A stretch of DNA of 64,000 bases, from contig JAEUQU010000002.1 of assembly GCA_016789455.1 (NCBI GenBank), positions 1,116,001 to 1,180,000 of the forward strand, given 5' to 3'. Source of the stretch: Candidatus Saccharibacteria bacterium. GTDB taxonomy: Bacteria; Patescibacteriota; Saccharimonadia; Saccharimonadales; Saccharimonadaceae. This document shows positions 21,844 through 38,412 of this stretch, in pieces. Within the stretch, counting starts at the first letter, position 1; each line of letters opens with the position of its first letter. The position numbers and the translations under genes were made by a program. The notes under the pieces are model-generated. The model was not told the DNA's origin. It ran no database searches and was given only the letters and a program-made list of their open reading frames with translations.

Positions 21844-22659
21844 ATGCAAAATGTGAAACAGCGGTACCGCTACTCAGCGATTTTGCTGAGAGAGCTGGTA
21901 ATTACCGATTTCAAACTGCGGTATCATGGGTCGGTGTTGGGGTATATCTGGTCGCTGCTGCGGCCGTTAGCCCTGTTTGCCATCCTGTATGTGGTCTTTG
22001 TCTGGTTCCTGCGGGTCGGCGAAGGGGTGCCGCACTACCCTATCTACCTGTTGCTGGGTATCGTGCTCTGGAACTACTTCGCCGAGGTGACGAATAACGG
22101 GGTCAGTGCCATCCTGGGCCGCGGCGATCTGATCCGCAAGATCAATTTCCCCAAGTATGTCATCGTGCTCTCGGGGTCGCTGTCGGCGCTGATCAACCTG
22201 GGTATCAACCTGGTGGTGGTGGCCCTGTTCATGGTGGTGTTCGGTACCGAGCTGCAGCCGGCGGCATTGATTTTTGTGCCGCTGCTCATCATCCAGCTGT
22301 TTGTGCTGGCCCTTGGTGTGGCCTTTCTGCTCAGCGCGCTCTATGTGAAGTTCCGCGACATCGGCTATATCTGGGAAGTCTTTATGCAGGGCGCCTTTTA
22401 TGCCACGCCGATTCTCTACCCGGTGACGTATGTCATGGAAAAGGCGTATTGGGCAGCACAGCTACAGATGCTGAACCCGATGGCGCAGATCGTCCAGGAT
22501 ATCCGCTACTACATGGTAACGACCGATGCGATCACTATCCATACATTGTTTGATAACCCGCTGTTGACGTGGTTGCCGGTGGTGCTGTCCGGGCTGATCT
22601 TCTGGCTGGGCGCCACGTATTTCAAGCGGCAATCCCGATACTTTGCGGAGAAGGTGTAA
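21844..22659 (+). CDS. wzm: ABC-2 type polysaccharide export permease (Wzm-like)
   Basis: 271 residues, the usual length for Wzm/TagG permeases. The N-terminal amphipathic segment (RYSAILLRELVITDFKLRY) and LGYIWSLLRPL are the family landmarks. About six membrane helices follow, including ALFAILYVVFVWFL, LVVVALFMVVFG and LFVLALGVAFLLSALYV. A YPVTYV segment lies near the end. It exports an undecaprenyl-linked glycan across the membrane, driven by the ATPase encoded one base downstream. Start of an operon running to 30649, under a near-perfect leaderless-type promoter. Confidence 0.9.
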   Translation: MQNVKQRYRYSAILLRELVITDFKLRYHGSVLGYIWSLLRPLALFAILYVVFVWFLRVGEGVPHYPIYLLLGIVLWNYFAEVTNNGVSAILGRGDLIRKINFPKYVIVLSGSLSALINLGINLVVVALFMVVFGTELQPAALIFVPLLIIQLFVLALGVAFLLSALYVKFRDIGYIWEVFMQGAFYATPILYPVTYVMEKAYWAAQLQMLNPMAQIVQDIRYYMVTTDAITIHTLFDNPLLTWLPVVLSGLIFWLGATYFKRQSRYFAEKV

Positions 22660-22660
22660 T

Positions 22661-23863
22661 ATGGGCAAGCAGACGGTACTTTCAGTCGAACATGTCAGCA
22701 AGCAGTTTATACTGCCGCATGAGCAAAGCAGCGATTCCTTAAAGCGGGCCATCACCGGCCTGTTTCAATCGCGCAACACCGGGTACGAGGTACAACACGC
22801 GCTCAAAGACGTTTCGTTCGAAGTGAAGAAGGGTGAGTTCTTCGGTATCCTGGGCCGCAACGGCAGCGGTAAGAGCACCATGCTGAAGATGCTGGCGGGC
22901 ATTTACCAGCCGACAGAAGGAACGATTGCATTTGAAGGGAAACTGGTGCCGTTCATCGAGCTTGGTGTCGGGTTCAACCCGGAGCTGACCGGCCGCGAGA
23001 ATGTCTTCCTCAACGGTGCCCTGCTTGGTTTTTCCAAGGAAGAGGTCGAAGACCGCTACGACGATATCGTCCGCTTTGCCGAGCTGGAGGATTTCATGGA
23101 CCAGAAGCTCAAGAACTACTCGAGCGGCATGCAGGTGCGGCTGGCCTTCTCTGTCGCGACGCACGCCGAGGCGGACATCCTGCTGATCGACGAGGTGCTG
23201 GCCGTGGGCGACGCTGATTTCCAGCGCAAGTGCTACAACTTTTTCAAATCGCTCAAGAAGAGCAAGAAGACGGTCATTTTTGTGACGCACGACATGGGCG
23301 CCGTCCGCGAATACTGCGACCGGGCCATCCTGATCCAGGAAGGTGTCATCACGCATGACGCCTCGGCCGACAAGGTCGCCGACGAATACCTGAAGATGTT
23401 CAACCAGCGCGAGGAAGAGCCGGAAGAGTCTGAAGACGGCGAAGAAGAGGTGACGAACCGCTATGGGACCGGCCAGGTAAAGTTTGACAGCATCACCGCC
23501 ACGACGACCGACGACGACGTGAAGATCACGATTGAGCTCCACAACAACAAGCGTGAAAGCGATATCGTCGTCGGCCTGCGCATCAAGGATGCTGAGGGGC
23601 GGCTGGTGACCGGTGGCAATACGCTGATGTATATGAAGCCGGAGCAGGGCCGGCTCGACCTGGCGCCGGGCGAGCGCAAGACGCTGCGCTATACGATTGA
23701 TAAGTCGCTGTTCGGGGCGGGTACGTTCTCGATCGGCTCCAGTATCAAGCTGCGCGACAAGGTGACGGTCTGTGACGACTGGGAAGGCGCCGCCAGCTTC
23801 TCGGTGGTGGCCCAGGAATCGTATTACCCGATCATCGCACCAGCCAAGCTGGAGGTCGAATAA
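22661..23863 (+). CDS. wzt: ABC transporter ATP-binding protein with Wzt-like C-terminal glycan-binding domain
   Basis: 400 residues from the ATG at 22661. The ATPase domain (about 1-245) has Walker A (GILGRNGSGKSTM, near 65), the signature NYSSGMQVRLAFS, Walker B (ADILLIDEVLAVGD) and the H-loop VTHDMGAV. After an acidic linker (EEEPEESEDGEEE, about 248-265) comes a ~130-residue beta-sandwich (KFDSITATTTDDDVK, YTIDKSLFGAGTFS) like the Wzt C-terminal domain. That domain recognises the modified non-reducing end of finished O-antigen-type chains before export. This suggests export of a capped polymer. It pairs with the permease just upstream. Confidence 0.9.
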   Translation: MGKQTVLSVEHVSKQFILPHEQSSDSLKRAITGLFQSRNTGYEVQHALKDVSFEVKKGEFFGILGRNGSGKSTMLKMLAGIYQPTEGTIAFEGKLVPFIELGVGFNPELTGRENVFLNGALLGFSKEEVEDRYDDIVRFAELEDFMDQKLKNYSSGMQVRLAFSVATHAEADILLIDEVLAVGDADFQRKCYNFFKSLKKSKKTVIFVTHDMGAVREYCDRAILIQEGVITHDASADKVADEYLKMFNQREEEPEESEDGEEEVTNRYGTGQVKFDSITATTTDDDVKITIELHNNKRESDIVVGLRIKDAEGRLVTGGNTLMYMKPEQGRLDLAPGERKTLRYTIDKSLFGAGTFSIGSSIKLRDKVTVCDDWEGAASFSVVAQESYYPIIAPAKLEVE

Positions 23864-25056: not shown

Positions 25057-26283
25057 ATGAAGCTGGGGATCGATCTACGACCATTACAGACGGGGCATAA
25101 GTATCGCGGCATCGGTGAGGTGACCAAGCAGGTGACGAACCGCGTCCTGCAGCTTGCTGCCGCTGACGAGGCGCGTGATATCGACATCCTGTTTTACGAA
25201 TACGACGACGATGACCCCAAGCAGCTGTTGGATATCCCCGAAGGTATCAGTTATGACGTAGTGAAGCTTGGTACCATGCCAGAAACCGACACGACCGCCA
25301 GCAAGAAGGAAAAACTACGCCGTCACTATGCGCTGCTGTATGGCAAGCCGGTGGAGGGTTCGGAGTACAGCGATGTTTTTCTGCAGTTCGATTACGCCCT
25401 CGGCGTCCCAACCGATACCAAGACGGTGCTGGTCAAACACGACCTGATTCCGCTGATCTTCTGGGATAAGTACTTTGAATCGGCCTGGGTGCCCTTCCGC
25501 AACAAGGCGGCGCGTACCACGCTGCGTACCCTGTTCAATAACCACAAGTTCATGCGGCAGCTGCGGCGGTCGCTGCGGGATGCGCATGTCGTCATGTCGG
25601 TGTCGCACAACACCAAGCGCGATATTGAGAAGTATTTCGGCGTGGACCCTGCCAAGTCGAAAGTAGCTCTGCTGGGCGTAGATGTGAAGCCGGCCAAGAC
25701 CAACGACATCACTGCCGTCGACAAAGCGCGCCTGCCCACCAAGCCCTATCTGCTGTTCGTGGGGGCGGGAGACGCCCGCCGCCGCGTCGACGACCTGGTA
25801 GCTGCCTATAACAATCTCAAAGCCGCCGGCCGTGATATCCAGCTGGTGCTGGTAGGTGAGAATTTCAAATCGCCCACCGATATCCCGAACGTGACGGTGC
25901 GCAACGCCGTGCTGGCCTCATCATACAAGAAAGACCTGCTGACGCTGGGCTACGTCGATGACGAGACCAAGCAATGGCTGTACAAGAACGCCTTGGCCTA
26001 CGTCTACCCTACGCGGTATGAGGGCTTTGGCATTCCCATTCTGGAGGCCATGCTGCTGGAGTGTCCGATTGTCGTGTACAAGAACTCATCGGTGCCGGAA
26101 GTGGGCGGCGAGCATGCTCTGTACGCCGAGAACTGGGAAGGACTGGTACGCCAGGTAGAAGCTTTGCTTGATGAGGCTCCCGAAACACGCCGCCAGCGCG
26201 TCCAGGCGGCCCGTAGGCACGCCGAACAGTTTACCTGGGATAAGACGGCGGCGGCTATTTATGAAGAGCTGGTAGGGGCTTAG
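25057..26283 (+). CDS. GT4-family glycosyltransferase
   Basis: 408 residues. It starts MKLGIDLRPLQTGHKYRGIGEV, a variant of the glycine-rich N-terminal loop. VLVKHDLIPLIF and VVMSVSHNTKRDIEKYFG mark the acceptor half. LLFVGAGDARRRVDDLVAAY and the signature YEGFGIPILEAMLLECPIV mark the donor-binding half. It directly abuts the preceding transferase and is a paralogue of it in layout. A cytoplasmic role in building the same polymer is likely; linkage and sugar cannot be assigned. Confidence 0.88.
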   Translation: MKLGIDLRPLQTGHKYRGIGEVTKQVTNRVLQLAAADEARDIDILFYEYDDDDPKQLLDIPEGISYDVVKLGTMPETDTTASKKEKLRRHYALLYGKPVEGSEYSDVFLQFDYALGVPTDTKTVLVKHDLIPLIFWDKYFESAWVPFRNKAARTTLRTLFNNHKFMRQLRRSLRDAHVVMSVSHNTKRDIEKYFGVDPAKSKVALLGVDVKPAKTNDITAVDKARLPTKPYLLFVGAGDARRRVDDLVAAYNNLKAAGRDIQLVLVGENFKSPTDIPNVTVRNAVLASSYKKDLLTLGYVDDETKQWLYKNALAYVYPTRYEGFGIPILEAMLLECPIVVYKNSSVPEVGGEHALYAENWEGLVRQVEALLDEAPETRRQRVQAARRHAEQFTWDKTAAAIYEELVGA

Positions 26284-26286
26284 CAT

Positions 26287-27666
26287 ATGGCGCGTGAATC
26301 GGCCAGCAACAACCAGGTGAGCCTGTATCGCCGTATACGGGCCAAGCTGGCCGGGCAGCGGCTGTATAGTCCGCACGACCTGATCGGGCCGCACCGCTTG
26401 GATATCGCTGCCAAGACGGTCTTTGCGCGGGCGTACATCGAGGGCAACACCTCGACCTGGCCAGAAGAGCTCTACCGCGAACACATCCGCGCCTGGAACG
26501 GGTTTTACGAGAAGGCACCGCTTAAGAACAGCTATGAGGATTTCCGGCGGTCGTTCGTCGAGGTCATCGAGTCGGCGCAGAACGGGAAGTTCCGCCACCA
26601 CGAAGCGCCGGTCAGCCTGGACCGCGAAGGGAAATTGGAGAACGGGGCGCACCGGGTGAGCACGGCGCTGGTGCTGGACAGGTTCGTCAACACCTTCATC
26701 AACGAGGAGATGACGGCCGGCCAGTGGAACCATGACTTCTTTTCCTACTGGGCGTTCTGGGCGCGTGAGCACCTCAACACCGGGCTGGCGGAAGAGTATG
26801 TGGATGCTATGACGGTGGAGTACATCGCACTGGCACCCAGGCAGATGTACGTGGTCATCGTCTTCCCCACCGCCGAGGATCACCGCGACGAAGCGGACGG
26901 CATCATCAGGTCGTTCGGCGACGTGCTGAATGTCAAAGAAATCCCGGCAGCCCGATTGAATGCCAAGGCGGTCATCCGCCAGCTCTACGCCGGTGAATGG
27001 TGGAATGATGACGACCATCTGGAGCACGTCGTGAACAAGGCGGAGGGCTGCTTTGCGGGCACGGCGCCGCTGCGGGTCTATATCGTCCGCTCGGATCTGG
27101 ATGAGGCAGGGCGCCGCGAAGAAAAGGTGAAACTGCGGGCGATGTGGGGCAAAGAAAACCACAGCATCCACATCAGCGACACGCCGGAAGAAGCGCACCG
27201 TCTGACGCGCATGTTCTTCCATGCCGGGTCACGGGCGGTATTGGGCGTGGAGCTGGAGCGTGAGTTCCCTGCCAAGTTCGGCCGGTTGTTCCGGGAGTTC
27301 ATGGCGGCGGCGCCCAGTGATATCCGGCAGCGTGATGATATCTGCATCGATTCCAGCAGCACCCTGGGCATCCTGGGGCTGCGTGATGTCAACGACATTG
27401 ATTATCTGCACCGCGGCGAAGCATTGGTGCGCACCGACAATCCCGACATCTCCAGCCACAATGAGCATGCTCACTGGTATGCCGACTCAATCGATGAGAT
27501 CGTCACCAATCCCCGGCTGCATTTCTACTATAATGGCATCAAGTTCGCAGCACCGGCAGTGGTGCGGGCTATGAAGGCCAACCGGGGTGAAGAAAAGGAT
27601 AAACGGGACGTAGCCCTGATAGATGGGTTCATGAACAACCATAAGGAGTTTTATGTCAAACGGTAA
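26287..27666 (+). CDS. glycan-cluster protein of unknown function, ParB-like and nucleotidyltransferase-like motifs
   Basis: 459 residues; I do not recognise the full-length family. Around residue 118 LDREGKLENGAHRVSTAL resembles the D-G-x-HR core of ParB/sulfiredoxin-like domains, which use it to bind nucleotides. Near residue 355 SSSTLGILGLRDVNDIDYL resembles the GS...D-x-D core of nucleotidyltransferase folds. In between are Trp/Asp-rich segments (YAGEWWNDDDHLEHV). It lies inside the exporter/transferase operon (3-base gap before, 14-base overlap after), so it most likely modifies or decorates the glycan. No membrane helix or signal is visible. Function is inference only. Confidence 0.45.
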   Translation: MARESASNNQVSLYRRIRAKLAGQRLYSPHDLIGPHRLDIAAKTVFARAYIEGNTSTWPEELYREHIRAWNGFYEKAPLKNSYEDFRRSFVEVIESAQNGKFRHHEAPVSLDREGKLENGAHRVSTALVLDRFVNTFINEEMTAGQWNHDFFSYWAFWAREHLNTGLAEEYVDAMTVEYIALAPRQMYVVIVFPTAEDHRDEADGIIRSFGDVLNVKEIPAARLNAKAVIRQLYAGEWWNDDDHLEHVVNKAEGCFAGTAPLRVYIVRSDLDEAGRREEKVKLRAMWGKENHSIHISDTPEEAHRLTRMFFHAGSRAVLGVELEREFPAKFGRLFREFMAAAPSDIRQRDDICIDSSSTLGILGLRDVNDIDYLHRGEALVRTDNPDISSHNEHAHWYADSIDEIVTNPRLHFYYNGIKFAAPAVVRAMKANRGEEKDKRDVALIDGFMNNHKEFYVKR

Positions 27667-28675
27667 GCATATTCCGAAAGTAGCTGTCATTACCAGGACG
27701 AAGGATCGGGGATTGTTGTTGGAGCGCGCCATCAAGAGCGTGCATCAGCAGACGATGGAGGATTTTGTTCATGTGATCATCAATGATGCGGGTGATCCTG
27801 CCATCGTGGAAGACCTGGTCAAAAAACATGAGCAGCTGATCCGCGGACGCGTCAAGATCATCCACAATACTGAGTCGCGCGGCATGGAAGCGGCTTCCAA
27901 CAAGGCGATCAAGAGTGTCGACTCGACCTTCATCGCCATCCACGATGATGACGACACCTGGCATCCGGATTTTTTGAAAGCAACCACCGAGCGGCTGGAA
28001 GATAACGGCATGCAGGGCGTGGTGGTGACGACCGACCGGGTAGTCGAGGACATCATCGACGACGTGGTGCATATCAAGCTGGTAGAGCGCTGGCTGCCGT
28101 GGGCCAAGGCTATTAATTTCTATAGCATGTGCATCGATAATTACGCCACGCCGATCACTTTTTTGTACCGCCGCGCCGTCTACGACAAGATCGGTTATTA
28201 CGACGAGAACCTGCCGGTGCTGGGCGACTGGGACTTTGCACTGCGGTTTATCCGGCTGCATGACATCGATTTCATCAACAGCGACACTGCCCTTGCCTAC
28301 TACCATCACCGTCCGAACGTGAAGGGCATCAACGGCAACAGCGTCTTTGCCGGCATCGACAAGCACGAGTATTACCTTAACCAGGTTGCTAATAAGTTCC
28401 TGCGTGAGGATCTGCAGCGTGGCAGCCTGGGCTTTGGCTACATGTTCAGCCACTTGCGCGCCCAGCGCGATAACCGGCGCGATATGGAGCGGCAACTCGA
28501 GAAGATCGAATGTCAGACACAGCAACTCAACCAACAGGTTGAAGAAGTGCGGCGCACCTTGGGTGAGCGGACGACCGGGGCGCATATCAAGAGCCTGTAC
28601 CGCATCGCCAAAAAGGTGCCGCGGCTGACACTCCACAAAGTAAAGAACACGATTAAGAAGGCAGGACGGATATAG
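27653..28675 (+). CDS. GT2-family glycosyltransferase
   Basis: 340 residues with a GT-A fold. The N-terminus has VAVITRTKDRGLLLERAIKS, followed by the nucleotide-binding IHDDDDTWHP (a DxD-type metal-binding motif near residue 100) and LPVLGDWDFALRF, where the acidic residues are the usual catalytic region. The C-terminal ~60 residues form a coiled-coil-like stretch (MERQLEKIECQTQQLNQQ), then a basic amphipathic end (VKNTIKKAGRI) that could touch the membrane. AAGGAG precedes the ATG, which overlaps the previous gene by 14 bases. Its stop touches the next gene's start. Confidence 0.87.
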   Translation: MSNGKHIPKVAVITRTKDRGLLLERAIKSVHQQTMEDFVHVIINDAGDPAIVEDLVKKHEQLIRGRVKIIHNTESRGMEAASNKAIKSVDSTFIAIHDDDDTWHPDFLKATTERLEDNGMQGVVVTTDRVVEDIIDDVVHIKLVERWLPWAKAINFYSMCIDNYATPITFLYRRAVYDKIGYYDENLPVLGDWDFALRFIRLHDIDFINSDTALAYYHHRPNVKGINGNSVFAGIDKHEYYLNQVANKFLREDLQRGSLGFGYMFSHLRAQRDNRRDMERQLEKIECQTQQLNQQVEEVRRTLGERTTGAHIKSLYRIAKKVPRLTLHKVKNTIKKAGRI

Positions 28676-30649
28676 ATGGACACGACGTACAAGGACAAGA
28701 TAGAGCAGGCAGACGTCGTATCATTTGATATCTTCGATACCGTCCTGATACGCAAGGTGGCCCGGCCGACCGACGTGTTCCGGATTGTCCAGGAGTATTT
28801 CAATGCGGTCAGTCCCCACTTCATCACGGCCGATTTTGCCAAGCTACGGGTAGACGCCGAAATAGAGGCGTACAAGACCATTAATCCCAACGCGGATATC
28901 GATGCGATTTATGGCATCATCGCCAGGCGCGGCAATTATAACGAGGCGTTCATCGAGGCGCTGAAGCGGGCGGAGCTGGACGTCGAATCCATCCTGCTGG
29001 AGCCGAACGCCGCCGGCGTGAAGCTGTATAAGCAGGCGCGGGAGGCGGGCAAGCAAGTGGTCTTCATCAGCGATATGTACCTGAAGAAAAGCTTCGTGAA
29101 GCAACTGCTGAAGAAGAACGGTTTTGATGAGTGGGATGAGCTGATCGTCTCGGCCGAGGATGGCGTCGCCAAGCACGACGGTACGGCGTACGCCCGGCTG
29201 TTCACGCTGTTTCCAGACAGTAATTACCTGCACGTCGGCGACAATGAGCACAGCGATATCCACTGGGCGCAGGCCTACGGCATCGATACCATCCACCTGG
29301 AACAGAACCTGAAGAAGATGTCATACGAGACGCAGCCGGTCAGCCAGACGGCGCAGGGTGGTATGCTGTACCGCAGCAGCCTGCAGTCGTCCTACTCGAT
29401 TGAGGATACCCAGCACAGCATGATTACTGGGATCATCGCCGGCAAGATCGCGGCGGGTGGACTGGCGACGCACGCCGAGAGCATCGGCTACTCAATATTC
29501 GGTCCATTGCTGCTGGGGTATGTGCAATGGCTGCATACACAGGCCAATACTGACGGCGTGGATGAGTTGTACTTTTTGGCGCGCGATGGCGCTATCATGC
29601 AGCGGGCCTATGACGAGTACTGGCGGGAACGTGCCTTGCCATCGCACTACCTGCTGGCTTCGCGCCGGCTCTATAACCTGCCTAAACTGACTGGTGCGTT
29701 CGCGCCCGAGGATATCACCTTCCTGACCTCGACTGATTATCCGCTGCTGGTGAGTGACTACATCGGCCGTCTGGGGCTGGAGACCAACGAACCGCGCGTG
29801 CGTACTGTGCTGCAGCAGCTTGGCCTGGAGCCTGAGACGCGCATCGATACGTCGCTGCTGCAGCAGCGCATGAAGGCGGCCTTCATGCTGCTGGCGGACG
29901 TGGTGCGCGAGCTGGCGCACAAAGAGCGGACGCTGCTGCTTGATTACTTCAGGGAGGAAGGGCTGAAGCAGGGCATGGGGCGCAATAAGGCTATCGTTGA
30001 TGTCGGTTGGAACGGCTCGATGCAGCGTTCTCTGAACACGCTGCTGAAATCGGAGTTTACCGGATACTACTTTGGCATCCACGATAACGAGGTGACGATT
30101 CCGATGGGCAATGCTATGGGTGCGTTCCTTGACCGGCGTAATGACCTGACCAAAGAACAGGCGATCCTGACCCGCGGCGCCGTCGAGGTCATGGAGTATT
30201 TCTTTACCAACCCTGCCCAGCAGAGCGTCGTCGGCCTCAAGAAACATGGCAAGGAATACGTGGCGGTGACCGCCGAGGAAGACCGCGACGAGACCATGCT
30301 GCAGAATCTGCGCGAGATACAGGCGTCTGCCGTCGATTTCATCAGTGATTTCAGGAAGTGCACGGCGCAGCTGCCGGAGGCGGCCCGTAAGATCAGTCTC
30401 GATGTGTCCATCCGCAACGCCGTTCATATGTACTACCATCCGAACGATGGGGCGGCGACAGTCATCGGGCTGGTGGCGCATTCGCACAGCATCGGGGTGC
30501 CAGCGCGTTTCATCGGTTCGCCGATCCATGACCGCGGGTACTACCTGAAGCATCGCGACGCGCTGCAGAAGGAATACGACATCGCCTACTGGAAGCCTGG
30601 CTTCATTAAGAATGCGGCGATGAAAGGGATTCCGTTCGAGTTATCGTAA
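28676..30649 (+). CDS. HAD-superfamily protein of polysaccharide clusters (COG5610-like)
   Basis: 657 residues. The HAD core is in the first ~210: motif I VVSFDIFDTVLIR (near residue 15), motif II VFISDMYLKK (near 125), a Lys in AEDGVAKHDG (motif III) and motif IV LHVGDNEHSDIHWA (near 180). The remaining ~440 residues form a helical region with a second apparent domain (LYFLARDGAIMQRAY, then IVDVGWNGSMQ near residue 445) that I cannot name but which recurs in long HAD proteins from O-antigen and capsule loci. It may act on phospho-sugars or phospho-modified glycans. Last gene of the exporter operon, followed by a strong terminator. Confidence 0.75.
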   Translation: MDTTYKDKIEQADVVSFDIFDTVLIRKVARPTDVFRIVQEYFNAVSPHFITADFAKLRVDAEIEAYKTINPNADIDAIYGIIARRGNYNEAFIEALKRAELDVESILLEPNAAGVKLYKQAREAGKQVVFISDMYLKKSFVKQLLKKNGFDEWDELIVSAEDGVAKHDGTAYARLFTLFPDSNYLHVGDNEHSDIHWAQAYGIDTIHLEQNLKKMSYETQPVSQTAQGGMLYRSSLQSSYSIEDTQHSMITGIIAGKIAAGGLATHAESIGYSIFGPLLLGYVQWLHTQANTDGVDELYFLARDGAIMQRAYDEYWRERALPSHYLLASRRLYNLPKLTGAFAPEDITFLTSTDYPLLVSDYIGRLGLETNEPRVRTVLQQLGLEPETRIDTSLLQQRMKAAFMLLADVVRELAHKERTLLLDYFREEGLKQGMGRNKAIVDVGWNGSMQRSLNTLLKSEFTGYYFGIHDNEVTIPMGNAMGAFLDRRNDLTKEQAILTRGAVEVMEYFFTNPAQQSVVGLKKHGKEYVAVTAEEDRDETMLQNLREIQASAVDFISDFRKCTAQLPEAARKISLDVSIRNAVHMYYHPNDGAATVIGLVAHSHSIGVPARFIGSPIHDRGYYLKHRDALQKEYDIAYWKPGFIKNAAMKGIPFELS

Positions 30650-30718: not shown

Positions 30719-32359
30719 TTACCAGCGGCCGCTAGTACCAGTCGCCCACAGCGCTTTGCTGCCACTGTAGATGACGACGTTGCCATCATCCTGCACAAAG
30801 AGCTTAGGCGAGGTGCCGCCGCCGCTGTTGCTGGCCCAGGTGGGGCGGTTGTTGGTGTCGTACATGACCAGGTTGCCGTCAGCCTGCATATAGACGGCTG
30901 CGATTGAACGGGCATTGGTGCCCGAGCCCCAGATGGCGCCACGCTGCGAGTAAAGAACCAGGTTGCCGTCGTTCTGCATGTGTAGCGAGTATTTGCCATT
31001 GCTCGACTTAAGCCATTGGCCGGGCTTAAGGCCCTTGTTAGTATCAAGCATGTTGGCAGGCGGCGGAGGGGTGGTGGTGCCGCCGTTACCGCCGGTCTGT
31101 GGCGGGGCGGGCGGCGCAGTGATGGTGAACTTGAAGTTCGTGTTGGTATTGTTGAACCAGGCGGCGCCGTCCATGACGAGCGTCAGGTCTTCTTGGAAGT
31201 AGGCGGCGTTGTTCGGTGCTTTCATCGCAAACTCGAAAGTGGCGTTTTCGCCCGGGCGGACGGTACTTTCTTTCATGTAAGCGATGCGGTTGCCGGCAAG
31301 CCAGGAGCTGTCCCACATGGCCGAGCCGCGGTCACGCGGGTTGTGCGGGGCCAGTTTGACGGTATTGGCGGTCCAGGTGTTGGCGCCGCGGTTGACGACG
31401 ACCAGCCGCAGATACACCGTTTGTCCGGCTGCCAGGTTGGCGTGGTTGTTAGCGTCGTTGATCTGGGTGGTGCGGGCGGCGTCGGAGTAGATGCCCTGCC
31501 AGACGCGGCCATAGTGGTATGGCCAGCCCTGGGTAGAGCCGAACCAGTTGGTGAAGTACAGGTAGAAGTTGCGATTGCCATAGGCGCCACAGTTGGCGGT
31601 GCCCCAGGTGGCATCAAGTGCACCCTGGTTGGGCTGGTACGGGGTGTAGTTGTAGAGGGCCTGGGTGGCGCGGTTCTGAATAGTGACGTTAGTGCCACCG
31701 CACGACTTGTTGGGGTTGTACTGGATGTAGTTGTTGCCAACGACGTACGGCGTATACCAGCTGGGGCTGGCGTTCATGATGGCGCGGAACATGCGGGCGG
31801 CCCAGCGCAGCTGGTTGGTAAGGCCGTAGTACTGTGAGTCGCATGGGGCGGTGTCCGGACAGCCATAGCCGGTGGCGGTCTTGTACTGGATGCTGACCGG
31901 CCAGGCATCGGTGACCAGGCCCTGCTCTTTCTGTAACAGGACAATCAGCACCTGAGGGTTGATGTTGAACTCGTGGGAGGCATCGTAGATGATCTGGGCG
32001 GCAGTCTTGCCGTTCTCGCTATAATCACGCAGGCAGGTAAACGGGGCGCTGTAGCCGCGGGCTTCGGCCCACTGGCGGCGCGTACCACCGCCGTACTCTG
32101 AGGGTTGGACGCCCCAAGTGTCGCAGTTTGGCATGCGGTCGTTTAGGAATGACTGGATGGCGGCGGCGGACATGGATGTCTTGTTGGTCATGACGCCGTC
32201 GCTGATGATGTTGCCGGCGTTCCAGCCTGGAACGGCCGCATCGGCCCGATCGTTGCCCAGACCGTACATCATAAAGCCGGCCGTCGTGACGAAGGTGGCC
32301 ACGATAAAGGTGGTGAGGCGGGAGGGCCGTTTAAATTTTGTGGAGGGGAGGGAGAGCAT
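30719..32359 (-). CDS. secreted protein: lytic-transglycosylase-like, NBR1-type Ig-like and bulb-lectin domains
   Basis: 546 residues. A hydrophobic N-terminal segment ending in ADAA looks like a signal peptide. About residues 45-260 contain FNINPQVLIVLLQKEQGL, where the Glu could be the catalytic residue of a transglycosylase/lysozyme-like fold; a Cys-rich segment (GYGCPDTAPCDS, KSCGGT, ANCGAYG) suggests disulfides. Residues ~300-400 (VYLRLVVVNRGANTW, STVRPGENATFEF) resemble the NBR1-type immunoglobulin-like domain. After a Pro/Gly linker, residues ~440-546 form a bulb-type lectin with three intact QxDxNxVxY mannose-binding motifs (QNDGNLVLY, QADGNLVMY, QDDGNVVIY). It is probably displayed on or shed from the cell surface; it follows the anchored 188-aa gene by 13 bases and lacks a visible ribosome-binding site. 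Confidence 0.78.
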   Translation of the reverse strand: MLSLPSTKFKRPSRLTTFIVATFVTTAGFMMYGLGNDRADAAVPGWNAGNIISDGVMTNKTSMSAAAIQSFLNDRMPNCDTWGVQPSEYGGGTRRQWAEARGYSAPFTCLRDYSENGKTAAQIIYDASHEFNINPQVLIVLLQKEQGLVTDAWPVSIQYKTATGYGCPDTAPCDSQYYGLTNQLRWAARMFRAIMNASPSWYTPYVVGNNYIQYNPNKSCGGTNVTIQNRATQALYNYTPYQPNQGALDATWGTANCGAYGNRNFYLYFTNWFGSTQGWPYHYGRVWQGIYSDAARTTQINDANNHANLAAGQTVYLRLVVVNRGANTWTANTVKLAPHNPRDRGSAMWDSSWLAGNRIAYMKESTVRPGENATFEFAMKAPNNAAYFQEDLTLVMDGAAWFNNTNTNFKFTITAPPAPPQTGGNGGTTTPPPPANMLDTNKGLKPGQWLKSSNGKYSLHMQNDGNLVLYSQRGAIWGSGTNARSIAAVYMQADGNLVMYDTNNRPTWASNSGGGTSPKLFVQDDGNVVIYSGSKALWATGTSGRW

Positions 32360-32372
32360 GGCTGCGGCGGGG

Positions 32373-32939
32373 CTACTTGATGGTTATCTTTTGAGAGGTA
32401 GCAGTTTTCTTGTCATCGTGGCTGGCAGAGACTTCCAGGTTCCATTCGCCAGGCGCCAATTCGCTGACAGGCACGTCGAAGCCCTGGCAGGTTGAGGTGC
32501 TGGCCATGGCCTGGATGCCGGCCTCACGGCTGACGCGCTTGTCGCCCATGGTGAGGTTGAGGTAACAGGTGCCGTTCCAGACGGCATCGATCTGGGTGCG
32601 GATCTGCAGGGTACCTTCATTCTGGTTGGCGGCCGTGATGGTCAGATTGACGCCACCGGAAGTATTGCCGTTATCGCCGGCATCATTCGCCTGGGGGGTC
32701 TTGGTGTCGGGGTATGGCAGCGGCGTGGGGGTGGCCTCCGGATTGTCGACCGGAGCCGGGTTCTGGCTGTCGTCGGCGTCCTGCCCCTGGCTGTAGTCGG
32801 CGTCGGTGCCGACGATACTGCGCAGGCTGTCGTTCACCAGGAAGTAGGCCAGACTGCTGCCCACAACAAGCACCGTCGCAACCAGTCCGGCGATCAAAAG
32901 AGTCTTTCTACTAGTAGTCTTGATAGGGGTGTTTTTCAT
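32373..32939 (-). CDS. membrane-anchored extracytoplasmic protein, unknown function
   Basis: 188 residues, no recognised family. A single N-terminal membrane helix (about 13-35, TLLIAGLVATVLVVGSSLAYF) is followed by a disordered Asp/Pro/Thr-rich linker (about 45-95). The ~90-residue beta-rich domain has two Cys (GTCYLNL and TSTCQGF) likely forming a disulfide. A TATAAT lies 14 bases before the ATG on the minus strand (32954-32959), giving a leader of about 7 bases. It is the first gene of a two-gene unit with the lectin protein and may act with it at the surface. Confidence 0.55.
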   Translation of the reverse strand: MKNTPIKTTSRKTLLIAGLVATVLVVGSSLAYFLVNDSLRSIVGTDADYSQGQDADDSQNPAPVDNPEATPTPLPYPDTKTPQANDAGDNGNTSGGVNLTITAANQNEGTLQIRTQIDAVWNGTCYLNLTMGDKRVSREAGIQAMASTSTCQGFDVPVSELAPGEWNLEVSASHDDKKTATSQKITIK

Positions 32940-34225: not shown

Positions 34226-34272
34226 AGGATATGTGGTTAATATACCCGTTTTATGCAATCGTCGCAAAGACT

Positions 34273-34281
34273 TGCTATAAT
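34273..34281 (+). promoter_or_regulatory. extended -10 promoter of the mannose-1-phosphate guanylyltransferase gene
   Basis: TTGCTATAAT ends at 34281: a perfect TATAAT (34276-34281) preceded by TGC gives an extended -10. It lies 7 bases before the ATG at 34289, so the message is probably leaderless. This also shows that an in-frame ATG at 34253, upstream of the promoter, cannot be the start. Confidence 0.75.
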
Positions 34282-34288
34282 CTTCTCT

Positions 34289-35338
34289 ATGATTATCGTT
34301 ATTATCGCCGGTGGCTCAGGCACCCGTCTCTGGCCCCTCTCAACCCCTTCGTTCCCCAAGCACTTGCTGTCGTTGACCGGCGAGCGCTCCATGCTGCAGA
34401 CCACCTATGACCGCGCCGCCAAGGTGGCCGACAGCGTCTACATCGTCACCGAGTCCGGCCACGCCGACGAACTACGCGCCCAGTTGCCCGAGCTGGCACC
34501 GGAAGCCTTCATTGTCGAGCCGGGCCGCCGCGGCACCGCCAGCTGTATCGTGGCCGCCCTGGATTGTCTGGCCCGCCGCCATGATGCCGAGGAGCCGATC
34601 GCCTTCATCCATGCCGACCACCATGTCCGTGACGCCGAGGGCTTTGCCCGTTCCTTCATCATCGCCGCCGCCGCCGCCAAAGAGAAGCGCTCCATCGCCC
34701 TGGTGGGTGTTGAGCCGACCAACCCGGCGACAGGCTTTGGCTATATCGAGAAAGGTGAGCCGATCCGGCTTGATTCCATCGTCCACTACGTCTGCGACTT
34801 CAAGGAAAAACCAGATTTCGACACCGCCCGCAACTACGTTGAAAGCGGCCGCTACCTCTGGAACTGCGGCTACTTCGTCGGTACGCTGACCATCTTCTTG
34901 GGCGCTATGCAAAAGCACGCGCCGGTCCTGTATGAGAACTTCCAGAAGCTGCAGGACATCAACGAGGACGCCAAGCGCTACAACGACACCTATCTTAGCT
35001 TTGAGAACGAAACCATCGACATCGCCCTGATCGAAAAGGTCGACAACCTGCTGGCCGTCCCCGCCACCTTCGACTGGATGGACGTCGGCTCCTTCAAGGA
35101 CCTGCATGACGCCAACCCGTCAGATGAAGCCGGTAACTTCTGCAAGGGCAAGGACATCTATCCACTGGAAGTCGAGAACGCTTTCATCCGCAACGAGGAG
35201 GACAAGCCCGTCGCCGTCATCGGCCTGGATAACATCGTCGTCGTCAATACCAAGCACGGTATCCTGGTGGCCCGCAAGGATATGAGCCAGCGCGTCGGTG
35301 ATATCGCCAAGGCGATCCAAAAGGCCAAGGCCACCTAG
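34289..35338 (+). CDS. manC: mannose-1-phosphate guanylyltransferase
   Basis: 349 residues. The N-terminus is the sugar-nucleotidyltransferase signature IIVIIAGGSGTRLWPLS, followed by PKHLLSLTGERSM. FIVEPGRRGTASC, FIHADHHVRD, NPATGFGYIEKG and the FDWMDVGSFKDLHD segment near residue 260 are landmarks of GDP-mannose pyrophosphorylases. It is the single-function form without the C-terminal isomerase domain. It makes GDP-mannose from GTP and mannose-1-phosphate, feeding GDP-mannose or dolichol-phosphate-mannose-type donors for the neighbouring transferases. The start is fixed by the extended -10 element 7 bases upstream. Confidence 0.9.
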   Translation: MIIVIIAGGSGTRLWPLSTPSFPKHLLSLTGERSMLQTTYDRAAKVADSVYIVTESGHADELRAQLPELAPEAFIVEPGRRGTASCIVAALDCLARRHDAEEPIAFIHADHHVRDAEGFARSFIIAAAAAKEKRSIALVGVEPTNPATGFGYIEKGEPIRLDSIVHYVCDFKEKPDFDTARNYVESGRYLWNCGYFVGTLTIFLGAMQKHAPVLYENFQKLQDINEDAKRYNDTYLSFENETIDIALIEKVDNLLAVPATFDWMDVGSFKDLHDANPSDEAGNFCKGKDIYPLEVENAFIRNEEDKPVAVIGLDNIVVVNTKHGILVARKDMSQRVGDIAKAIQKAKAT

Positions 35339-35856: not shown

Positions 35857-36979
35857 TGTGGTTCAGGACTGACTCGCGCAGCTCGTTGATGAAACGGGCA
35901 GTGCTGAAACGCTCGGCGGAGTCGCTGACGGTGCGGGGGTCAAAGTTGATCATTTCAAAACGTCCGATGGCTGCCATCAGTGAGTCGACCGTCTGTGATT
36001 CAAAGAAGACGCCGTTGATGCCATCCTGGATATAATCGAGCGCGCCGCCGTTCTTGTAGGCGATGACGGGCGTGCCGGCGGAAAGCGCCTCTACCGGTGT
36101 GATGCCAAAATCTTCGCGGCCAGGGAAGATGAGCGCCTTGGCCTGCTGGAAATAAGCAGTGATGTCAGCGTCCTCAATGTTCTCCAAAAAGAGCACGTTG
36201 GCGCCGCCCCGCCGCTTCAGCTCCTCGTGTTCACTTCCCTTGCCGATCACGACCAGCCGCTTGTTCAGCTGCGAGCAGGCCACGACGGCCAGGTCGAGCC
36301 GCTTGTAGGGAATCTGGCGGCCGACCACCAGGTAGTAATCCTGCTTCTGCACCGGTGCCTGCGGGCGCAGGCGGTTGGTGTCGACCGGCGGGAAGATGAC
36401 TTCGGAATCGCGGTTATAGTACTCTTTGATGCGGCGTTGTACCTCATGGGAGTTGGCAATGAAGCGGTTGACGCCGTGAGTACTCTCCAGGTCGCGCTTC
36501 CGCATCCAGCGCACAAAAGCCGGCATGACCAGCCGGACGAGGGGATTGAGCATGCCAAAGCCCGGATTCTGCATGTATTCCTCGTAGTGGCTCCAGTAAT
36601 AGCGGATGGGGCTGTGGCAATAGCAGATGTGCATGGCCATCTGTTTTCGGGTGACGACTGCCTTGGCTTCGGCGCTGGCGCTGGACAGGATGATGTCGTA
36701 TTCCTTAAGATCTAACTTCTTAAAGGCGGCAGGCCGCAGCACCGGCCAGAGCTGGTGCTTATAGCGCAGGGATTTTGGCAATTTCTGCAGCCAGGTGGTG
36801 CGCACATCCAGGCCTAAGAAGGCCGGGCAGCCCTCCGGGTTGAACACCGAGGTAAAGATTGGCGCATCCGGAAACGCCTCGTGCATCGCCAAGACGACGC
36901 GCTCGGCGCCGCCCATATTGGTGAGCCAGTCGCAGACAATCGCAATCTCAGGGCTGCTGGTCTCTTCTGTCTCGCTCAT
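35747..36979 (-). CDS. GT4-family glycosyltransferase (mannosyltransferase-like)
   Basis: 410 residues with a GT-B fold. The N-terminal ~170 residues include the glycine loop CDWLTNMGGAERVVLAMHEAFPD and ICYCHSPIRYYWSHYEEYM, common in WbaZ/WcaC-type mannosyltransferases. The donor half has YYLVVGRQIPYKRLDLAVVA and the EDFGITPVEALSAGTPVIAY signature. The last ~40 residues are Pro-rich and low-complexity. It overlaps the upstream sugar-transferase gene by four bases, and its end overlaps the oppositely transcribed GtrA gene by 110 bases. It most likely adds an early sugar to the undecaprenyl-linked unit. Confidence 0.87.
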   Translation of the reverse strand: MSETEETSSPEIAIVCDWLTNMGGAERVVLAMHEAFPDAPIFTSVFNPEGCPAFLGLDVRTTWLQKLPKSLRYKHQLWPVLRPAAFKKLDLKEYDIILSSASAEAKAVVTRKQMAMHICYCHSPIRYYWSHYEEYMQNPGFGMLNPLVRLVMPAFVRWMRKRDLESTHGVNRFIANSHEVQRRIKEYYNRDSEVIFPPVDTNRLRPQAPVQKQDYYLVVGRQIPYKRLDLAVVACSQLNKRLVVIGKGSEHEELKRRGGANVLFLENIEDADITAYFQQAKALIFPGREDFGITPVEALSAGTPVIAYKNGGALDYIQDGINGVFFESQTVDSLMAAIGRFEMINFDPRTVSDSAERFSTARFINELRESVLNHTNPNAGPPPAPQPPALPPTPPKIGPIRPDDDGDVLV

Positions 36980-38412
36980 CGTGCCCCCCGTTTAAATATG
37001 ACGACCGGGAGAGTCTTGAGCAGGATTTTCATGTCCAGCCAAAAACTCCAGTTCTGTGCATAGTATAGCTCAAGTTCGACGCGCTGCTCAAAGCGCAATT
37101 GGTTACGGCCTGAAACCTGCCAGAGGCCGGTAATGCCTGATTTGACGCTGTGCAACAGGGCGCCGCGGCCACGGTAGAGGGGCAGTTCCTGCGGCAGGAT
37201 GGGGCGCGGACCCACCAAGCTCAGGTCGCCCTTCAGGACGTTGAACAGCTGTGGCAATTCATCCAACGAGGTAGCCCGGATGAACCGGCCGAACATGGTG
37301 ATGCGTGGATCATTGACCACTTTGCGGTTGATCTCGTATTCGCGGGCCAGGTCTTCCCTGCCCATCTCGCGGAATTCTTCGGCGGCGTCCTTCTTGCCGT
37401 ACTTGCTGCTCATGCTGCGGAATTTGATGAGGCGGAAAGGCTCTGAATAGCGGGTGAGCCGTTTGCTCAGGTAAAAGACCGGTCCAGGATTGAGTATCAA
37501 TTGTAGTAAAATAAGCAACAAGAACAGTGGTGACAGCACGATGAGCGCCAGGCTGGTAGCCAGCACATCAAACCAGCGCTTTACCAGCTCACCCCAGCCG
37601 ATCAGCGGCGTCTGGTGGACGTTGATGATGGGATAGCCCAAAAAGATATCGATGGTGTTCTTGCCGGAGTAAAACTCGGCTTCGCCAGGGATGAAACTGT
37701 ACTGGATGTGGCGCTCCTGGGCGACGCTCAAAATATTCTGGTTATGGGTGGCCGATTCGTACAGGTTAGTCTGGATGATACCGGTGACGCCCATGCTTTC
37801 CAGTGCAGCCAGGGCTTTATCAACGGAGGTAAAGTGCTCGCCGCGGAAACCATGGGGCACCAGGTGCTTGGGACAGACCAGGGCCACGACGCGGTAGCCG
37901 GAGCGGCGGGTATCGCTGAGGCTGCCCACGATGTCACGCGTGGCGTCACTCTCGCCGATGATCATTATCTTATTGATGCCGACACCGATGCGGAAGAGAT
38001 AAGTACGTAACTGGCGCATGATTTCGCGGCCCAGGACCAGCAGGATGAAGGCGCCGCCAAAGCTATAAATGGCCACCAGGCGGGCCGGGAAGATCGGCCG
38101 GTTGATGGCGTACGAAAAACCAAGCATCAACAGGATGCCGATGAAGCTGCCGATGAACAACCGGCCAACTTCGGTCAGCCGCTTGGAATAGACCGACGAA
38201 CTATAGAGTCCCAGGAATCCGAAGATGATCTGCCAGAGCGGCGCGATGATCAGTGCGGTCACAAAGAAATCATAGGCATAGACCGGCACCAGCAGCGGCC
38301 GGGTGTCTATTTGGGTACGTATAAAATAGGCCACGCTGAAGGCGGCAACCAGGATGATGAAATCGGCGATAATCAGCGATAAGCTGTACGACCGGGCGGA
38401 TTTAGTAGGCAT
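36976..38412 (-). CDS. undecaprenyl-phosphate sugar phosphotransferase (WbaP/WcaJ type)
   Basis: 478 residues. Five N-terminal membrane helices (from SLSLIIADFIILVAAFSVAY to about residue 130) are followed by a CoA-binding-like Rossmann segment (IMIIGESDATRDIVGSL). The C-terminal catalytic part starts with a last helix (LALIVLSPLFLLLILL) and contains the polyprenol phosphohexose-1-phosphate transferase motifs: LIKFRSM, TSLDELPQLFNVL, LVGPRPILP and the VKSGITGLWQVSGRN block. It moves a hexose-1-phosphate onto undecaprenyl phosphate and so starts glycan synthesis. It heads a two-gene operon with the GT4 gene and diverges from the ligase gene. Confidence 0.93.
   Translation of the reverse strand: MPTKSARSYSLSLIIADFIILVAAFSVAYFIRTQIDTRPLLVPVYAYDFFVTALIIAPLWQIIFGFLGLYSSSVYSKRLTEVGRLFIGSFIGILLMLGFSYAINRPIFPARLVAIYSFGGAFILLVLGREIMRQLRTYLFRIGVGINKIMIIGESDATRDIVGSLSDTRRSGYRVVALVCPKHLVPHGFRGEHFTSVDKALAALESMGVTGIIQTNLYESATHNQNILSVAQERHIQYSFIPGEAEFYSGKNTIDIFLGYPIINVHQTPLIGWGELVKRWFDVLATSLALIVLSPLFLLLILLQLILNPGPVFYLSKRLTRYSEPFRLIKFRSMSSKYGKKDAAEEFREMGREDLAREYEINRKVVNDPRITMFGRFIRATSLDELPQLFNVLKGDLSLVGPRPILPQELPLYRGRGALLHSVKSGITGLWQVSGRNQLRFEQRVELELYYAQNWSFWLDMKILLKTLPVVIFKRGAR

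What the first reader, a model, noticed from the sequence alone, without database searches (positions are those of the whole stretch)
30719..32359. Secreted multi-domain lectin protein next to mannose genes
All three QxDxNxVxY motifs are intact, so mannose binding is credible. The same polypeptide carries a transglycosylase-like and an NBR1-type Ig-like domain. Beside manC and a PIG-V-like mannosyltransferase it may bind the cell's own glycan, or mannose-rich actinobacterial surface polymers such as arabinomannan. It would then be a candidate adhesin or wall-opening factor for host attachment.
Basis: partly seen in the sequence, partly recalled or inferred. Interest (0 to 1): 0.7.

Follow-up and report, generated by a model that had tools for sequence, protein, structure and literature searches.

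The report
Swappable-tail wall protein in Saccharibacteria
This is one member of a protein family found across Saccharibacteria, tiny bacteria whose known members live on other bacteria: a fixed lysozyme-like part joined to an interchangeable sugar-binding tail, and in the clearest case the tail was exchanged together with neighbouring genes that build a surface sugar polymer.

Summary
ORF 30719-32359(-) encodes a secreted-looking 546-aa protein with a lysozyme-fold head, a weakly supported NBR1/NPCBM-type Ig-like domain and a GNA-type mannose lectin with three intact QxDxNxVxY motifs. The mannose-gene neighbourhood is not the general feature.

(1) The ~235-aa head has no Pfam model and occurs in most genomes of this Saccharibacteria family, but tails fall into at least 12 unrelated groups (ricin, ChW, LGFP, SH3-like, B-lectin, DUF5648 and others). 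(2) A tightly linked partner gene (TM helix, linker, Ig domain) lies directly upstream in 110 of 113 loci; both sit at a polysaccharide gene cluster. (3) In two genomes 97% identical at DNA level up to the last head codons (WFG), tail plus a 12-15 kb polysaccharide cassette are non-homologous, then 96% identity resumes.

I favour a wall-engaging head whose tail binds the polysaccharide made by the coupled cassette (0.45). Host-directed adhesin/lysin remains open (0.30). Enzyme activity, mannose binding and localisation are untested. No matching description turned up in the open-access library searched.

The parts
30719..32359 (-). head-and-tail gene, 546 aa, the reported finding
   Evidence: homologues
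32234..32359 (-). residues 1-42: signal-peptide-like N-terminus (hydrophobic stretch, then ADAA), secretion inferred
   Evidence: sequence; hydrophobic N-termini in the homologues
31538..32233 (-). residues 43-274: conserved lysozyme-fold head; Lys144-Glu145 invariant, six invariant or near-invariant Cys
   Evidence: alignment, model, fold; no Pfam
31925..31927 (-). Glu145, invariant, candidate catalytic acid in the motif INPQVLIVLLQKEQ
   Evidence: role inferred
31172..31435 (-). residues 309-396: NBR1/NPCBM-associated Ig-like domain
30725..31054 (-). residues 436-545: GNA-type B-lectin domain, three intact mannose-site motifs (462-470, 492-500, 523-531)
32373..32939 (-). partner gene, 188 aa: TM helix, flexible linker, Ig-like beta-sandwich with two conserved Cys; 13 bp upstream of the head gene
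34253..35338 (+). manC-type mannose-1-phosphate guanylyltransferase; near the head gene in 7 of 36 loci
36976..38412 (-). Bac_transf polysaccharide-initiating sugar transferase, cluster flank
25057..28675 (+). GT4, unnamed 459-aa protein and GT2 genes on the tail side of the cluster
22643..23863 (+). Wzt-type polysaccharide ABC-transporter ATPase with Wzt_C domain

Best explanation
It is the secreted half of a two-gene surface module. The partner is held in the membrane and presents an Ig domain. The head has a lysozyme fold and most likely grips or nicks peptidoglycan. The exchangeable tail recognises the surface polysaccharide made and exported by the neighbouring gene cassette, here probably a mannose-containing polymer, and so seats or organises that polymer on the wall. 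When a cell acquires a new polysaccharide cassette it acquires the matching tail with it, joined at the WFG codons. SHOWN: domain anatomy, predicted fold, tight linkage of the two genes, tail exchange at a fixed junction, co-exchange of tail and cassette in one genome pair. INFERRED: secretion, peptidoglycan binding or cleavage, partner-head interaction, tail-to-own-polymer binding.
For: Partner plus head in 36 of 36 loci, mostly with glycan-biosynthesis genes around them, and in 110 of 113 loci overall, most commonly overlapping by 4 bp. G754 vs G755: 97% identity up to the head end, then about 30%, a non-homologous block of 12.6 vs 14.7 kb, then 96% again. The G754 block holds glycosyltransferases, pyruvyl transferase, UDP-galactopyranose mutase and an ABC ATPase. 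Two further pairs lose DNA similarity at the same junction. Same-type tails share more downstream genes at equal head identity: 0 of 500 permutations reach it, though the effect is small. B-lectin tails in genomes with manC 5 of 6 vs 7 of 24 for other tails. Actinobacterial homologues next to ABC transporter genes of polysaccharide-export type carry CWB2- and LGFP-like repeats (read from sequence).
Against: No binding or localisation data. The manC association is only p 0.026 and is not significant when relatedness is controlled (about 1 pair for, 0.2 against). Co-exchange could simply mean that all surface determinants of a hypervariable island move together. Upstream genes are also glycan genes in the window, and tail-side gene sharing is low in absolute terms (about 0.05-0.11 for same-type pairs below 90% head identity). 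The full cassette exchange with resumed identity was traced in one genome pair only.
Confidence: 0.45

Rival explanations
1. Host-directed adhesin or lysin: the tail binds glycans on the host cell (mannose-rich polymers for this tail) and the lysozyme-fold head loosens the host wall locally, giving attachment or nutrient access; tails switch when hosts switch.
For: Cultivated Saccharibacteria are epibionts on Actinobacteria (PMC10633639). Tails are glycan- or wall-binding types and switch quickly. In Southlakia epibionticum neighbouring genes SEML1_0890 (FnIII) and SEML1_0891 (VCBS) are essential and were proposed to target host glycans; they may be this pair, since an FG-GAP/VCBS-type tail exists (L018), but this was not tested.
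Against: Homologues of the head in large-genome Actinomycetota; position at the cell's own polysaccharide cluster; tail exchanged together with that cassette.
Confidence: 0.3
2. Ordinary autolysin-like wall enzyme: the head trims the cell's own peptidoglycan, and the tails are generic wall-targeting modules with no fixed relation to the neighbouring polysaccharide.
For: Lysozyme fold closest to GH73 autolysins LytB and AtlE; invariant Glu; head-only proteins with lipobox-like N-termini in Actinomycetota (L081, L082).
Against: Does not explain the near-strict gene pair, the position at polysaccharide clusters, or the co-exchange of tail and cassette.
Confidence: 0.15
3. Phage- or competitor-driven antigenic variation: tail and polysaccharide are both exposed and diversify to escape recognition; binding specificity is secondary.
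For: Scattered distribution of tail types on the head tree: 31 changes among 54 rows with 12 tail labels; median identity within a tail type only 29-44% at 60-100% head identity.
Against: Recognisable tails are recurrent carbohydrate- or wall-binding families rather than arbitrary exposed domains.
Confidence: 0.1

Closest known systems
GNA/MMBL B-lectins (M. smegmatis lectin 4oit, plant agglutinins, putidacin/pyocin L)
   Same: C-terminal domain homology and three intact mannose-site motifs
   Different: single domain at the end of a lysozyme-fold protein; not two tandem lectin domains as in the lectin-like bacteriocins
GH73 autolysins (LytB, AtlE) and GH23-type lytic transglycosylases
   Same: fold by structure comparison (Z 9.7 LytB, 8.1 AtlE), invariant Glu at the end of a helix
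   Different: no sequence family match; Cys-rich head; tails exchangeable; near-obligate partner gene; activity unknown
Capsule-locus switching (pneumococcal cps and similar; from general knowledge)
   Same: variable polysaccharide cassette replaced between conserved flanks
   Different: here one breakpoint lies inside a protein gene, so that a secreted protein's tail is the first element of the exchanged cassette
SEML1_0890/SEML1_0891 of Southlakia epibionticum (PMC10633639)
   Same: consecutively numbered essential envelope genes with an FnIII-type and a VCBS-type protein
   Different: identity with this pair not tested; the sequences could not be located under their names

Membership tests
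B-lectin (PF01453 / GNA-type) | three QxDxNxVxY carbohydrate-site motifs | tested here: met
   all three intact
B-lectin (PF01453 / GNA-type) | homology to solved mannose lectins over the whole domain | tested here: met
   PDB 4oit E 9e-21 over residues 439-539
B-lectin (PF01453 / GNA-type) | Pfam curated cut-off | tested here: inconclusive
   26.6 bits against 32.4; E 9e-6
B-lectin (PF01453 / GNA-type) | mannose binding | not testable with these tools
   needs binding assay
Lysozyme superfamily (GH73/GH23-like fold) | fold | tested here: met
   top VIA rows almost all peptidoglycan-cleaving lysozyme-fold enzymes, best Z 9.7 over 140 residues; Foldseek E-values are not significant on their own
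Lysozyme superfamily (GH73/GH23-like fold) | catalytic Glu conserved | tested here: inconclusive
   Glu145 invariant in 52 of 52 aligned and a KE motif in 113 of 113; superposition on a known catalytic residue not available
GH73 or GH23 sequence family (not claimed) | Pfam or NCBIfam family match of the head | tested here: not met
   none for the window protein's head; hence described as lysozyme-fold, not filed as GH73 or GH23
Lysozyme superfamily (GH73/GH23-like fold) | peptidoglycan cleavage | not testable with these tools
   needs zymogram or muropeptide assay
Putidacin L1-type lectin-like bacteriocin (rejected) | full-length NCBIfam NF033557 match | tested here: not met
   76.9 bits against 275, lectin part only
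NBR1-type Ig-like domain (PF16158) | profile match | tested here: inconclusive
   E 0.021 for this protein, 6e-12 for the best homologue

The most novel reading that the evidence does not exclude
The head-tail protein is a cassette-coupled specificity factor: a fixed wall-engaging head with a tail encoded as the first module of an exchangeable polysaccharide island, so that one recombination event changes both the surface polymer and the protein that reads it. In an episymbiont group this would be a main determinant of surface identity and possibly of host choice.
Probability: 0.4. Interest if true: 0.85.

Novelty: new variant of a known kind. Interest (0 to 1): 0.62.

Why it matters
How Saccharibacteria recognise hosts and what their surface polysaccharides do are open questions. 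This names a widespread, mostly single-copy gene pair whose head has no family model in the libraries searched, gives its modular logic, and shows an exchange unit with a precise breakpoint. It turns the questions 'which protein sets surface or host specificity' and 'is the essential EPS of epibionts tied to a protein reader' into tests on two genes in cultivable strains.

Tried and rejected
Mannose-gene adjacency as the defining context: rejected, manC near the gene in 7 of 36 loci, and the B-lectin/manC association is not significant after relatedness. Lectin-like bacteriocin: rejected by domain make-up. Phage origin: PHROGs match only the lectin part, BFVD gives only weak lysozyme-fold matches. 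Partner gene in Actinomycetota: only weak partial matches over the TM/linker part in six genomes. Weak hits of the partner profile in other CPR cover mainly TM helix and linker and were not counted. Literature searches for lectin, transglycosylase, LGFP, peptidoglycan-hydrolase and polysaccharide terms with Saccharibacteria or Patescibacteria found no description of this family (titles and abstracts were read, one paper was searched in full text); the library lacks many subscription papers and preprints. Chimeric assembly as the cause of tail exchange is unlikely for G754/G755: long contigs of separate assemblies with identity resuming on the far side.

Full report
WHAT IS THERE. The window lies in a 1.44-Mb genome whose protein relatives in named records are almost all Candidatus Saccharibacteria. 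ORF 30719-32359(-) encodes 546 aa: a signal-peptide-like N-terminus, a Cys-rich domain (43-274), an Ig-like domain (309-396, weak PF16158/PF10633), a Pro/Gly-rich linker and a C-terminal B-lectin (436-545; PDB 4oit E 9e-21) with three intact QxDxNxVxY motifs.

THE HEAD. Residues up to about 278 align in every one of 1431 pairs of 54 relatives, whereas only 171 pairs of tails align. In 52 sequences 29 columns are invariant, including Lys144-Glu145; a KE motif is present in 113 of 113 sequences of the larger set. No Pfam family matches the window head. An AlphaFold2 model from 52 sequences has pLDDT 96 and pTM 0.92. VIA-align's best rows are LytB (Z 9.7, 140 residues, 3.1 A), AtlE (8.1), phage lysins, Mlt/Slt transglycosylases and goose lysozyme. 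The single Foldseek E-values are weak; what persuades is that nearly all top matches are peptidoglycan-cleaving enzymes of one superfamily. That Glu145 is the catalytic acid is inferred from its invariance and its place at the end of a helix after INPQ.

THE TAILS. In 52 full-length relatives Pfam finds ricin-type lectins (8), B-lectins (8), NBR1-Ig (6), ChW (5), LGFP (4), DUF5648 (3) and FG-GAP (1); a further 13 share an SH3/GW-like repeat that I name from sequence only. On the head tree the 12 tail labels need 31 changes among 54 rows; with the actinobacterial group, 32 (minimum 12, shuffled mean 41.8). The window's own near relatives show it: L005 (head 75% identical) has B-lectins, L007 (73-74%) has an SH3-like tail, and the same-genus genome G001 carries a repeat tail that looks like a beta-propeller. 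Among 24 de-duplicated pairs with heads at least 85% identical only 12 share a tail type.

THE PARTNER. A ~190-aa gene lies immediately upstream on the same strand in 36 of 36 loci and 110 of 113, usually overlapping or within a few bases; in two of the three exceptions no ORF was found immediately upstream, the third is one of two head genes on L044. It has a TM helix, a low-complexity linker and a C-terminal beta-sandwich with two invariant Cys (Ig/FnIII-like, VIA Z 11.0 with an adhesin repeat). In a phylum-wide sample (380 genomes) full-length partner matches coincide with strong head matches at adjacent positions in 28 genomes, by my reading; weaker partner hits cover mainly TM helix and linker.

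DISTRIBUTION. Of 101 genomes of the family 78 match the full protein (60 of 67 good-quality); nearly all of these match through the head, a few only through the Ig or lectin part. In one genus made up at least partly of gut MAGs 127 of 147 have the head, mostly single copy. Across the phylum 148 of 380 match, many only as remote partial matches, and 9 of 296 Actinomycetota, strong in three genomes of 3.4-4.3 Mb. Actinobacterial versions include short proteins with lipobox-like N-termini and proteins with LGFP-like, CWB2-like and other repeats (tails read from sequence). Two of the loci examined lie beside ABC transporter genes that look like polysaccharide exporters. The partner is not found in the six Actinomycetota genomes tested beyond weak partial matches.

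THE EXCHANGE UNIT. L046 and L048 (G755, G754; separate MAGs) have heads 96-97% identical and unrelated tails (ricin-type and SH3-like). DNA identity is about 97-98% up to the WFG codons and about 30% immediately after. The non-homologous stretch runs 12.6 kb in one and 14.7 kb in the other, with only partial 72% similarity at galE and the transporter genes, then 96% identity resumes for 11.6 kb. In G754 the stretch holds a polysaccharide pyruvyl transferase, GT2s, UDP-galactopyranose mutase and an ABC ATPase, with galE and an export permease by sequence; the shared right flank is GT2, GtrA and uvrA by sequence. L042/L050 and L038/L039 also lose DNA similarity at the head-tail junction. At equal head identity same-type tails share more downstream genes (excess 0.037, permutation s.d. 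0.011, 0 of 500); this shuffling controls relatedness only through head-identity strata.

THE WINDOW'S CLUSTER. Around the pair lie manC, GtrA, GT4, a Bac_transf initiating transferase, GT2 and GT4 genes and a Wzt with a Wzt_C domain. From general knowledge Wzt_C domains read the cell's own polymer, including polymannans. Mannose activation, a polymer-reading exporter and a mannose lectin in one cluster fit an own mannose-containing glycan, but manC was not found near most relatives, and its association with B-lectin tails (5 of 6 vs 7 of 24, p 0.026) is not significant in the relatedness test, which had few independent pairs.

MECHANISM AND RIVALS. Best supported is a wall-engaging head with a tail matched to the polymer of the coupled cassette. 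The host-adhesin/lysin reading fits the lifestyle and the published essentiality of neighbouring FnIII and VCBS genes in S. epibionticum, whose identity with this pair I could not test. Plain autolysin and antigenic variation are further rivals. None of the binding or enzymatic steps is shown.

NOVELTY. All ingredients (lysozyme fold, lectin tails, capsule-type locus exchange) are known kinds; the coupling of a secreted protein's tail to an exchangeable polysaccharide cassette in an episymbiont group is, as far as the searches here reach, undescribed.

Noticed in passing
L001:250-2052 (G000:C1 near 99309-99527): A second B-lectin protein in the same genome, 600 aa, secreted-looking, with the lectin in the N-terminal third followed by a region that looks glycosidase-like by eye.
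   Followed up: no
28676-30649: 657-aa HAD-like protein convergent with the tail end of the head gene, unnamed by Pfam beyond a weak phosphatase match; probably part of the glycan cluster.
   Followed up: no
G857:C43, G851:C28, G812:C4, G782:C10, G873:C46; L044: Tandem or nearby duplicate head proteins in a minority of genomes.
   Followed up: partly
L053 (record titled Methanobrevibacter) vs L052: Identical Saccharibacteria head-tail protein in a contig assigned to a methanogen MAG: probably a mis-binned contig.
   Followed up: partly
22643-23863: Wzt with a Wzt_C domain in the window, pointing to an ABC-exported polymer.
   Followed up: partly
A1 matches in other CPR groups: Many CPR genomes outside Saccharibacteria hold remote, partial head relatives; whether these share tail exchange was not examined.
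   Followed up: no
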